From the NCBI GenBank assembly GCA_963402885.1, contig OY727095.1:5275001-5339000 (forward strand): DNA of 64,000 nucleotides, written 5' to 3'. This document shows positions 8,421-63,512 of this stretch, piece by piece. Origin of the DNA: Antedon bifida. Lineage: Eukaryota > Echinodermata > Crinoidea > Comatulida > Antedonidae. A model generated the notes under the pieces. It was not told where the DNA came from. It saw only the letters and a list, made by a program, of their open reading frames with translations, and ran no database searches. Position numbers and translations under genes: made by a program. Position 1 is the first letter of the stretch. Every line of letters starts with the position of its first letter.

Positions 8421-8489
8421 CGGTCTATGATCACTGGGTCTGATGGCGTTTCGTTTCTGTTTCCACAACTCTTCTTATCACAGCAACGG
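8421..8489 (-). CDS. EBF: EBF exon 6
   Basis: Residues 161-183 plus two bases. Acceptor ATTTTCAG, donor GTAAGT at 8420. It encodes [19 protein letters not shown] followed by IID, with C163 and C169 of the COE zinc knuckle. A 16-bp minisatellite starts about 14 bp upstream of the acceptor. No exon 7 (FFLKFFLKCNQNCL type) was found to its left. Confidence 0.97.
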
Positions 8490-61900: not shown

Positions 61901-63512
61901 GTGGTTGTCTTTGTTGGTGTCTTGGTTTGTGGTGTCTTTGGAGATGATTTTCCTGGTGTTTTCTTACCAGTACTCTTTACTGGTGTATCTAACTTTAGTG
62001 GTGTTTTAGATTGTGCTGCTTTTGTAGGTGTCTTTACTGGCGTTTTCTTTCCTGGAGTAGTCGTCTTCACTGGGGTCTTTGATGAAGTTTTTGATGCCTG
62101 CAATGACAGTCTTTTTGACCTGTCTGTACTACTCGACACAATAGGACTTTGAATAACCTTCTTTCCACCAGGTTTGGGAGAACCACGCATCACTGAACCA
62201 GGAGGATACTCAAATCTAAGTAAAAGTTGTAGGCAAACATTAAAACTTAGATCTATCAACATTAGATAATTGCAACAGACAACATAGACAATCAATTCTT
62301 TCTGCATTCTTTACTTTATCTAGTAATAGATGGTAAATTTCTATTTTCAAGTTTTATGCTATTACAGTATTTTAAAACGAGCAATTAAATGTTACTACGA
62401 TAATCTGAAATTTCAGAAGGCTATTACCAATTGGTTATTGAAAAGTCAAAATAATACAAAACATAATTACTGCAGACAAACTAACCTGAATGATCTATCA
62501 CTGATTGTGAACACATCCATGTGATTAACTTTCTCGTTTTTTATTATTGCCTTTCCATTCAGTAGTGTTGGGTTAGTTGCACTGAGATTGGTAAGGATTA
62601 TCTGAAAATAAAAATGATAAATAGAAGTATTTACTTATATACTCAAGTTAGATGATCAGTATCTTCATCCACAAGACCAAACACCCAGATAAATCAGCTG
62701 CTTTATGGTGTTAAAAAGTAAAAACAATATTACCACCCTTAACCTTACAGTAACAATAGATGCTTCTTTGATCTGAACAATAGAGGATTGTTTGATTTTA
62801 ACAATAAAGTCTTCTTTGGGTGGTGGGTATAACTAAGGGGAAGTGTCAAATCATATACTGTAGCCATTCAAGTAAATACTGTGACTAATTTAACTTAATT
62901 TAATAGTACTATGACAAATCATTCAACCACCAACCTCAGAGTTTTTCTTCACAGAGATTCTGCAATGCTCCACGGACACATTAGCTAATTGAATCCTGAT
63001 ATCGCATTCATTCGTTCTAAAATGTAAATTATTAAAAAACCAATGATTATTATTATTAACTCAATATATCAGACAGCCTTCAACAACATTTATTATTTAT
63101 AGGTTATACATTGGATTTTTGTTGTTTTGCAGGCAGTACGATTCTGGGAAAGTTGACTAAAGATGTTTAATCATAGTACCGGATACTCAGTGCTGTATCT
63201 CCACATATGGCAATATTTTCCATCAATCTAGGTGATTGATACTGTTGTGGTACATGTGAAAAACAGACATTTTCCAGATACTATACTAGAGAAATCCCAC
63301 AGTACCAAGAATTAGGAACATGACGTACACAATTCATAGTCAGCGAGTCCATCAAATAACATATTATTTTGTAAATGGTAATCCAGTTTTAGCTGAATAC
63401 AAATTATACTAATAGTTTACCTTCCAAATAAACACTGATCTGCAGTTAATGGAAAATGTGCCCCATCTGCTCCATTTCTTTTGATAACCACAATCTTACC
63501 GTGAAGTGGCAT
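56620..63512 (-). CDS. MKI67: Ki-67 homologue (MKI67-like), complete coding sequence, 9 exons, 1611 residues
   Basis: Ki-67 coats mitotic chromosomes, keeps them apart and docks PP1. Exons (all GT-AG, frame consistent): 63512-63421, 63016-62935, 62601-62486, 62215-61464, 61129-61062, 60925-60805, 60575-59620, 59469-59173, 58971-56620. Residues 1-100 form the FHA domain: GR 30-31, S45-x2-H48, TNPT 67-70, NG 73-74. Repeated LFQTP-like blocks include TPEELFKILTPK (308-319), LPDLFQTP (670-677) and LEDLFQTP (886-893). RVSFG (440-444), then LPPSTPLRRG, matches the PP1-docking motif of Ki-67 and RepoMan. TWADIVKKG (784-792) and SPATIIIGKA (842-851) match conserved vertebrate Ki-67 blocks. Many TP and SP sites suit CDK1 control. 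The C terminus is very basic, ending RSRRK, as in the chromatin-binding LR region. Human Ki-67 is about twice as long, mainly from more repeats. The start has A at -3. Confidence 0.95.
57080..57715 (-). repeat. Four 159-bp coding repeats in Ki-67 exon 9
   Basis: CCTTAGGTGG marks each copy at 57162, 57321, 57480 and 57639, an exact 159-bp (53-codon) period. Each unit encodes PKKSNRRK...EEV-SPPKARSTRS. Confidence 0.93.
57926..58610 (-). repeat. Duplicated Ki-67 repeat unit, 414-bp period
   Basis: Blocks 57926-58197 and 58340-58610 are nearly identical at DNA level, with long exact runs around ATCTCTGAAACTCCAGCGAA at 57941 and 58355. Each is a Ki-67-type repeat. Confidence 0.93.
59173..59469 (-). 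CDS. MKI67: Ki-67 exon 8
   Basis: 99 codons, residues 730-828. TWADIVKKGAKK matches the vertebrate SWADVVKLGAK block. Acceptor TTTTGTAG, donor GTAGAT, phase 0 at both ends. Confidence 0.93.
59620..60575 (-). CDS. MKI67: Ki-67 exon 7 (PP1-docking exon)
   Basis: Residues 411-729. It carries KRKRVSFG with the downstream FDKKLPPSTPLRRG, then about six 15-residue repeats (STPKASTPAKSPKKS), then LPDLFQTP. A TPLRKDI...GIELK unit is tandemly repeated across the exon 7/8 junction. Acceptor TTTTTTAG, donor GTGTGT. Confidence 0.94.
59890..60165 (-). repeat. 45-bp coding repeats in Ki-67 exon 7
   Basis: About six copies of a 45-bp unit containing GGAGTGCTACTTTTCTTGGG, for example starting at 59903 and 59948. 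They encode STPKASTPAKSPKKS. Confidence 0.92.
60805..60925 (-). CDS. MKI67: Ki-67 exon 6
   Basis: 121-bp exon, residues 371-410: GVPFGSPRQPKSTPLKTAMD, then QLKRRSAPVVEESPRTKRSP. Acceptor TTATTAG, donor GTATTT. Confidence 0.88.
61062..61129 (-). CDS. MKI67: Ki-67 exon 5
   Basis: 68-bp exon, residues 348-370: TTPQIKKSPKRLSGSLKKIK. It restores phase exactly between exons 4 and 6. Acceptor TTTTTAAG, donor GTGAGT. Confidence 0.88.
61177..61297. mobile_element. Small foldback element in Ki-67 intron 4
   Basis: Inverted ends AGTAAACTCTCCCAAAACCA (left) and TATTGGGAGAGTTTACT (right), about 120 bp in all. No coding capacity. It is distinct from the MITE family in EBF. Confidence 0.7.
61464..62215 (-). 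CDS. MKI67: Ki-67 exon 4
   Basis: Residues 97-347. After FEYPPG the sequence becomes a Lys/Thr/Pro/Ser-rich array with degenerate KTPTKATTPAKKTPAKTPQT units, then TPEELFKILTPK. Acceptor TACTTAG, donor GTAAAT. A 39-bp piece (61550-61588) is repeated exactly at 63750-63788. Confidence 0.93.
62486..62601 (-). CDS. MKI67: Ki-67 exon 3
   Basis: Residues 59-96 plus two bases. LTNLSATNPTLLNGKAI and DVFTISDRSFR finish the FHA domain. Acceptor ATTTTCAG, donor GTTAGT. Confidence 0.94.
62602..62934 (-). other. Ki-67 intron 2, with 24-bp tandem repeat
   Basis: Separates the two main FHA exons. It contains 2.8 copies of a 24-bp repeat (AACAATAGATGCTTCTTTGA type, about 62752-62822) that lies inside an 84-bp open block flanked by an AG and a GT (62832-62749). 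Confidence 0.8.
62935..63016 (-). CDS. MKI67: Ki-67 exon 2
   Basis: Residues 31-58. RTNECDIRIQLANVSVEHCR is the phosphopeptide-binding face of the FHA domain. Acceptor ATTTTAG, donor GTTGGT, phase 0. Confidence 0.94.
63017..63420 (-). other. Ki-67 intron 1
   Basis: 404 bp between donor GTAAAC and acceptor TTTTAG; AT-rich, nothing else recognised. Confidence 0.85.
63421..63512 (-). CDS. MKI67: Ki-67 exon 1 (coding part)
   Basis: Residues 1-30 plus two bases. MPLHGKIVVIKRNGADGAHF parallels the vertebrate start (IKRSGVDGPHFPL) and ends at CLFG of the FHA core. Donor GTAAAC. Confidence 0.93.

What the first reader, a model, noticed from the sequence alone, without database searches (positions are those of the whole stretch)
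8421..63512. EBF/COE and Ki-67 are neighbours, as in human 10q26
Seen: COE exon 1 at 39.7 kb and the Ki-67 stop codon at 56.6 kb are adjacent and on the same strand, with no supported gene between them. Known: human EBF3 and MKI67 both lie in 10q26, with MGMT between them. Inference: the linkage may predate vertebrates. The order differs: here Ki-67's 3' end faces EBF's 5' end, whereas in human, as I recall, EBF3's 3' end faces MKI67's 5' end. That points to a local inversion or shuffle, or to independent proximity.
Basis: partly seen in the sequence, partly recalled or inferred. Interest (0 to 1): 0.75.

Follow-up and report, generated by a model that had tools for sequence, protein, structure and literature searches.

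The report
Ancient EBF–Ki-67–MGMT gene neighbourhood, reshuffled
In what looks like a feather star (a crinoid), the EBF/COE gene sits beside the Ki-67 gene and close to MGMT and a DOCK gene, a set that also sits together in human 10q26, so this gene neighbourhood very probably predates vertebrates, although Ki-67 has changed place within it.

Summary
COE (exons 1-6, minus strand, 39725-8421) and a complete Ki-67 gene (minus strand, 63512-56620, 9 exons, 1611 aa) are neighbours 16.9 kb apart; six frames of 40001-55001 hold no Pfam domain. The mitochondrial contig points to a crinoid. In the own genome (315.6 Mb) all COE and PP1_bind hits are these two genes.
BNIP3, GLRX3, JAKMIP and TCERG1, recalled members of the same human paralogon, are on the same chromosome (11.2% of the genome); UROS was not found.
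The order differs from human: DOCK-MGMT-COE agrees (CCT7 interposed), Ki-67 is displaced. One inversion cannot do this; the four genes need three inversions or a transposition. Chance and misjoin are unlikely. One invertebrate species was tested. Why the block held (long-range COE regulation or slow rearrangement) is inferred.

The parts
56620..63512 (-). Ki-67 (MKI67-type) gene, complete coding region, 9 exons, 1611 aa
   Evidence: splice sites, open frame; domains
63421..63512 (-). Ki-67 exon 1, start codon at 63512, first part of FHA domain
62486..63016 (-). Ki-67 exons 2 (63016-62935) and 3 (62601-62486), rest of FHA domain
   Evidence: FHA 2.2e-11, human Ki-67 FHA 6.5e-29
61464..62215 (-). 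Ki-67 exon 4, Lys/Thr/Pro-rich repeats
60805..61129 (-). Ki-67 exons 5 (61129-61062) and 6 (60925-60805)
   Evidence: splice sites and frame only
59620..60575 (-). Ki-67 exon 7 with the PP1-docking motif near 60380-60500, then 45-base tandem repeats
   Evidence: TRF
59173..59469 (-). Ki-67 exon 8
   Evidence: a WAD(I/V)VK stretch resembles human Ki-67 (recalled)
56620..58971 (-). Ki-67 exon 9 with KI67R repeats and basic C terminus
   Evidence: KI67R 5.9e-7, two stretches, below curated cut-off; 84 K/R against 25 D/E in the last 300 positions of the translation, stop sign included
39726..56619 (.). interval between Ki-67 stop and COE start; no supported gene
   Evidence: six-frame Pfam scan of 40001-55001, nothing; no tRNA, no Rfam match
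39595..39725 (-). COE exon 1 with start codon
33632..33788 (-). COE exon 2
32134..32197 (-). COE exon 3
29475..29530 (-). COE exon 4
18236..18309 (-). COE exon 5
8421..8489 (-). COE exon 6, last exon of COE in the window; later exons lie at C8:5236459-5230705

Best explanation
The window shows part of an ancient deuterostome gene neighbourhood. A crinoid keeps one COE gene, one Ki-67 gene (the single forerunner of vertebrate Ki-67 and Repo-Man/CDCA2), MGMT and a DOCK1/2/5-type gene within about 235 kb of one chromosome. The two vertebrate genome duplications then copied this neighbourhood, giving DOCK1-MKI67-MGMT-EBF3 (human 10q26) and DOCK5-CDCA2-EBF2 (human 8p21). DOCK, MGMT and COE keep the human 10q26 order and direction; Ki-67 changed sides relative to COE by a transposition or about three inversions in one of the two lineages. 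Shown here: the genes, their order, strands and single hits. Taken from papers: the vertebrate clusters. Recalled: human strands and most paralogon membership. Inferred: common descent of the linkage. The most likely reason for the long linkage is that COE's long-range regulatory DNA spreads over its neighbours and penalises breaks (vertebrate EBF3, GLRX3 and MGMT share one of the largest clusters of ultraconserved non-coding elements); this step is inferred at about 0.45, the alternative being slow rearrangement of echinoderm and vertebrate chromosomes.
For: Genes verified. Only MGMT hit of the genome about 30 kb from COE's last matched exon, best PDB match human MGMT 4e-23. DOCK-type gene at C8:5111860-5129867, plus strand, closer to DOCK2/DOCK5 (52.8 bits over 52 aa) than the second DOCK_N gene on C16 (39.3 bits over 75 aa). 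Eight further recalled paralogon genes were sought with families chosen before each search: MGMT, DOCK1/2/5, BNIP3, JAKMIP (32.0 bits against a cut-off of 30.2), GLRX3 and TCERG1 are on C8; KCTD9 has only a below-cut-off hit, also on C8; UROS was not found. Six on a contig that is 11.2% of the genome would be 2.0e-6 by chance if independent. Family members that are not the recalled neighbours lie elsewhere: GLRX5 on C14, another DOCK_N on C16, other DHR-2 genes on C10 and C11. Vertebrate clusters: PMC6135963 (passages), PMC10741191 (passages). Repo-Man probably derives from a Ki-67 duplication: PMC8354752 (passages). EBF3; GLRX3; MGMT cluster of 96 ultraconserved elements: PMC3436827 (passages).
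Against: Only one invertebrate genome could be examined. Ki-67's position and the whole order are not the human ones. CCT7 lies between MGMT and COE. GLRX3, next to EBF3 in vertebrates, is 8.4 Mb away here, so not the whole vertebrate cluster is together. On Ki-67's far side comes FIGNL1, which is not a recalled 10q26/8p21 gene. PTPRE, FOXI2, CLRN3, FAM196A, PPP2R2, DPYSL and GnRH were not tested. The orthology of BNIP3 and JAKMIP rests on a family hit and comparison by eye with recalled sequences. No conserved non-coding DNA was shown here.
Confidence: 0.85

Rival explanations
1. Only DOCK-MGMT-COE is an ancestral tight cluster. Ki-67 was always on the same chromosome but came to lie beside COE secondarily in the crinoid lineage, so the immediate adjacency is new even though the chromosome-scale linkage is old.
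For: Ki-67 lies on the other side of COE from where vertebrates keep MKI67 and CDCA2 (human strands recalled), and it is the gene that changed place. Its other neighbour FIGNL1 is not part of the recalled vertebrate cluster. Many genes of the paralogon share C8.
Against: Vertebrates also keep the Ki-67 relatives in the same clusters as EBF3 and EBF2; returning to within 17 kb of COE by chance from elsewhere on a 35 Mb contig is unlikely.
Confidence: 0.1
2. Independent proximity: the human and crinoid arrangements arose separately by chance.
For: The order differs and CCT7 and FIGNL1 are interposed or adjacent.
Against: Four further genes of the paralogon share the contig.
Confidence: 0.03
3. 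Assembly misjoin between 40 and 56 kb put Ki-67 next to COE.
For: No reads are available here; the interval has no gene that bridges it.
Against: No N in the window; a misjoin would have to pick, by accident, the very gene that vertebrates keep near EBF.
Confidence: 0.02

Closest known systems
Vertebrate GnRH3 / human 10q26 cluster (DOCK1, FAM196A, FOXI2, CLRN3, PTPRE, MKI67, MGMT, EBF3, GLRX3; PMC6135963, passages)
   Same: COE/EBF, Ki-67, MGMT and a DOCK1/2/5-type gene together; DOCK, MGMT and COE in the same order and (human strands recalled) same direction, MGMT and COE convergent.
   Different: Ki-67 lies on COE's 5' side instead of between DOCK and MGMT; CCT7 lies between MGMT and COE; GLRX3 is 8.4 Mb away; the span is about 235 kb instead of the roughly 3 Mb recalled for human.
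Vertebrate GnRH1 / human 8p21 cluster (DOCK5, GNRH1, KCTD9, CDCA2, EBF2; pig list in PMC10741191, passages)
   Same: A Ki-67-family gene, an EBF gene and a DOCK gene together; the window gene's PP1-docking motif matches CDCA2 as well as Ki-67.
   Different: CDCA2 lacks the FHA domain (recalled) that the window gene has; CDCA2 is on EBF2's 3' side and on the other strand (recalled); no MGMT in that list.
EBF3 genomic regulatory block in vertebrates (96 ultraconserved elements, genes EBF3, GLRX3, MGMT; PMC3436827, passages)
   Same: EBF/COE linked to MGMT.
   Different: No conserved non-coding elements were demonstrated in the crinoid; GLRX3 is not in the block.

Membership tests
Ki-67 (MKI67) | N-terminal FHA domain of Ki-67 type | tested here: met
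   PDB best match human Ki-67, 6.5e-29; Pfam FHA 2.2e-11
Ki-67 (MKI67) | PP1-docking motif (KiR-SLiM) shared with Repo-Man | tested here: met
   Pfam PP1_bind 8.1e-14; PDB Ki-67 1.7e-9 and CDCA2 1.8e-9; only hit in the genome
Ki-67 (MKI67) | Ki-67 repeats (KI67R) | tested here: inconclusive
   E 5.9e-7 in two stretches, but 30.5 bits is under the curated 32.4
Ki-67 (MKI67) | C-terminal LR domain that binds DNA and coats mitotic chromosomes | not testable with these tools
   C terminus is basic; localisation needs an experiment
COE/EBF | COE DNA-binding domain with zinc-knuckle segment | tested here: met
   COE1_DBD 2.1e-90; all five PF16422 matches of the genome are exons of this gene
MGMT | methyltransferase domain with PCHR active site | tested here: met
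   DNA_binding_1 5.4e-29; human MGMT 4e-23 with PCHRV aligned
Ancestral DOCK-Ki67-MGMT-EBF block | member genes physically clustered | tested here: met
   C8:5111860-5338512
Ancestral DOCK-Ki67-MGMT-EBF block | order and strands as in human 10q26 | tested here: not met
   DOCK, MGMT, COE agree; Ki-67 displaced; three inversions or one transposition (human strands recalled)
Ancestral DOCK-Ki67-MGMT-EBF block | same cluster in other invertebrate deuterostomes | not testable with these tools
   no other animal genomes are held
Genomic regulatory block around COE | cluster of conserved non-coding elements spanning bystander genes | not tested
   needs a second crinoid or echinoderm sequence
Crinoid origin of the window | crinoid mitochondrial composition, size and nad4L place | tested here: met
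   C27 is 15844 bases, T 46.7%, C 11.4% against T 44.9%, C 12% in Florometra (PMC7748595, passage); nad4L lies between nad4 and nad5 (genes other than cox1 named by eye; crinoid order recalled)

The most novel reading that the evidence does not exclude
The crinoid keeps, almost compacted, a pre-vertebrate DOCK-MGMT-CCT7-COE-Ki-67 neighbourhood held together as a COE regulatory block for over half a billion years. Both vertebrate clusters (10q26 and 8p21) and the part of human 2p13 with CCT7, MTHFD2 and SLC4A5 would be its scattered descendants. CCT7 fits this: it is listed with SLC4A5 and MTHFD2 in a cattle gene list (PMC12075139, passage; same chromosome recalled), and those two flank GnRH1 in chicken and gar (PMC6135963, passage).
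Probability: 0.3. Interest if true: 0.6.

Novelty: new member of a known kind. Interest (0 to 1): 0.45.

Why it matters
The vertebrate clusters around EBF3 and EBF2 have been used to trace the two genome duplications, but I found no paper in the held library that carries the linkage beyond vertebrates (listings and passages only). A crinoid with one COE and one Ki-67 side by side gives an unduplicated reference, makes it testable whether Repo-Man arose from Ki-67 by whole-genome duplication rather than by a local copy, and offers a compact place to ask whether COE's regulatory DNA locks its neighbours. It also shows a full Ki-67 (FHA, PP1 motif, weak Ki-67 repeats) outside vertebrates; a 2021 review speaks of all types of vertebrates and does not contain the word invertebrate (PMC8354752, find), while PMC7794384 (passages) names Ki67 as the metazoan bridgin homologue. 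That invertebrate Ki-67 genes are already annotated in databases is my recollection.

Tried and rejected
A single local inversion was rejected as the explanation of the order: two are needed for Ki-67 and EBF alone with free orientation, three with orientation fixed, three with DOCK and MGMT; the human 8p21 order needs two (human strands recalled, CCT7 left out).

A gene between COE and Ki-67 was looked for and not found. UROS, a recalled 10q26 gene, gave no hit in the genome, so it tests nothing. KCTD9 gave one hit under the cut-off with a stop inside and is not counted. GLRX3 is on the same contig but not near COE, which speaks against conservation of the whole vertebrate cluster. The flank right of the window (200 kb) was read only in part: 161 open frames of at least 100 aa were listed, the output was cut, and 7 of these were scanned with Pfam; no vertebrate 10q26 or 8p21 gene was seen among them, but FOXI2, PTPRE and CLRN3 were not sought by name. 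The stretch 5202540-5205000 and everything between DOCK and MGMT was not held. Of three naming tools only Pfam was used on proteins. No structure was predicted.

Literature: searches found no paper with all terms; one search found one (PMC6135963); a microsynteny paper looked for by DOI is not held; PMC8851819 does not contain ebf, mgmt or ki-67; PMC5856267 gave no crinoid nad4L order.
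Full report
The window and its source. The window is C8:5275001-5339000 of a 315.6 Mb assembly in 27 contigs; C8 is 35.4 Mb. The single cox1 match lies on contig C27, 15844 bases. Its frames are open in the echinoderm mitochondrial code; cox1 was found by Pfam, the other genes I named by eye. On the cox1 strand it is 46.7% T and 11.4% C, like the crinoid bias reported for Florometra (44.9% T, 12% C; PMC7748595, passage), and nad4L lies between nad4 and nad5; a unique nad4L rearrangement within crinoids is in the title of a cited paper (reference passages), its exact form I recall. 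HYR domains (one open frame tested, 9.7e-17; many more by eye) fit an echinoderm. I take it to be a crinoid; the species is not known.

The two genes. COE exons 1 to 6 and a complete nine-exon Ki-67 gene are on the minus strand, every intron within the models GT-AG. COE matches COE1_DBD at 2.1e-90 and continues leftwards to about C8:5230705, so the gene spans about 84 kb; its stop codon was not located. The Ki-67 protein has the Ki-67-type FHA domain (human Ki-67 6.5e-29; Pfam also lists a related T3SS FHA-fold family at 1.2e-10), a PP1-docking motif that matches Ki-67 and CDCA2 equally, and Ki-67 repeats just below the curated cut-off. The 16.9 kb between the genes hold no Pfam family in six frames over 40001-55001. 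PF16422 gives five matches in the genome, all exons of this COE; PP1_bind gives one, this Ki-67.

The neighbourhood. From left to right on C8: a DOCK gene, plus strand, DOCK_N at 5111860-5114174 and DHR-2 at 5129745; MGMT, plus, 5200791-5201039, the only hit in the genome; CCT7, plus, about 5205.2-5219.3 kb (Pfam; best PDB match the eta subunit, 1.1e-34); COE, minus; Ki-67, minus; FIGNL1, minus, about 5340.4-5347.2 kb (best PDB match Fidgetin-like 1, 5.7e-42; outer exons by eye). The DOCK exon is closest to DOCK2 and DOCK5 among solved structures.

Comparison with vertebrates. A paper on GnRH genes lists DOCK1, FAM196A, FOXI2, CLRN3, PTPRE, MKI67, MGMT, EBF3 and GLRX3 as the cluster around GnRH3, and KCTD9 and DOCK5 around GnRH1, and says the GnRH genes are proposed to come from the two early vertebrate genome duplications (PMC6135963, passages). 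A pig study lists DOCK5, GNRH1, KCTD9, CDCA2 and EBF2 in one interval (PMC10741191, passages); a human 8p duplication holds the same genes (PMC6542989, passage). This dates the linkage before the duplications without any invertebrate; the crinoid then shows the unduplicated state.

Wider linkage. Eight further recalled genes of the 10q26/8p21/5q paralogon were sought. Six are on C8: MGMT, DOCK1/2/5, BNIP3 at 13.40 Mb, JAKMIP at 12.95 Mb, weak, GLRX3 at 13.74 Mb and TCERG1 at 34.86 Mb. KCTD9 has one sub-threshold hit, on C8. UROS was not found. Close relatives that are not paralogon members lie elsewhere: GLRX5 on C14, a second DOCK_N gene on C16 (I take it for DOCK3/4 from memory) and two more DHR-2 genes on C10 and C11. 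Six of six independent placements on 11.2% of the genome would be 2.0e-6; genes of one ancestral chromosome are of course not independent, which is the point.

Order. With human strands from memory, 10q26 reads DOCK1+ MKI67- MGMT+ EBF3-, and the crinoid DOCK+ MGMT+ COE- Ki-67- (CCT7 left out). DOCK, MGMT and COE agree. A search over inversions gives three for the four genes, two to three for Ki-67 and EBF alone, two from the 8p21 order, and one between the two human orders. In both vertebrate clusters the Ki-67 relative lies on EBF's 3' side (order from the papers above, strands recalled), in the crinoid on its 5' side.

Why it held together. In vertebrates EBF3, GLRX3 and MGMT share a cluster of 96 ultraconserved non-coding elements, tied for second place among the rows of Table 2 that I saw (PMC3436827, passages), and an EBF enhancer present in three human copies was assigned to the EBF genes with MGMT as bystander (PMC3599049, passages). 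A regulatory block around COE is therefore my preferred mechanism for the MGMT-COE linkage, but nothing here shows conserved non-coding DNA in the crinoid, and GLRX3, a member of the vertebrate block, is 8.4 Mb away. Slow rearrangement alone is a fair alternative.

Verdict. It extends a known vertebrate linkage to one echinoderm and corrects the picture of the rearrangement. It is not a new kind of system.

Noticed in passing
C8:5205220-5219264 (L029, L028): CCT7 lies between MGMT and COE on the plus strand. A cattle gene list names CCT7 together with SLC4A5 and MTHFD2 (PMC12075139, passage), and these two sit at the GnRH1 locus in chicken and gar (PMC6135963), so part of human 2p13 may belong to the same ancestral block.
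   Followed up: partly
C8:5340408-5347204 (L006): FIGNL1 lies directly upstream of Ki-67 on the same strand.
   Followed up: partly
C8:5350306-5371495 and C8:5421923-5442883 (L007-L009, L014-L016): Two near-identical copies of a NIDO/EGF-domain gene about 71.6 kb apart, judged from matching open frames; one NIDO and one EGF frame confirmed.
   Followed up: partly
C8:5383580-5397534 and C8:5455282-5502398 (L010-L011, L017-L022): Long arrays of HYR-like exons (hyalin-like), one confirmed as HYR at 9.7e-17, the rest by eye.
   Followed up: partly
8512-8790: A 16-base tandem repeat of 17.2 copies ends 23 bases before the acceptor of COE exon 6.
   Followed up: no
57148-57706, 59897-60167, 61785-61938: Tandem repeats of 159, 45 and 45-60 bases inside Ki-67 exons 9, 7 and 4: the coding sequence itself grows by in-frame repeats. 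The long plus-strand frames opposite Ki-67 are a by-product of this composition.
   Followed up: no
C8:5401895-5404280 (L012): Open frames that look like a Penelope-type retroelement (reverse transcriptase and GIY-YIG-like stretches), by eye only.
   Followed up: no
C8:5520452-5521564 (L024): A 371-aa frame with rhodanese and dual-specificity phosphatase domains, with a similar truncated frame at C8:5417613-5418002.
   Followed up: no
C8:12.9-13.7 Mb: JAKMIP, BNIP3 and GLRX3 hits lie within 0.8 Mb of each other, like their recalled closeness in human 10q26.3: a possible second conserved block.
   Followed up: partly
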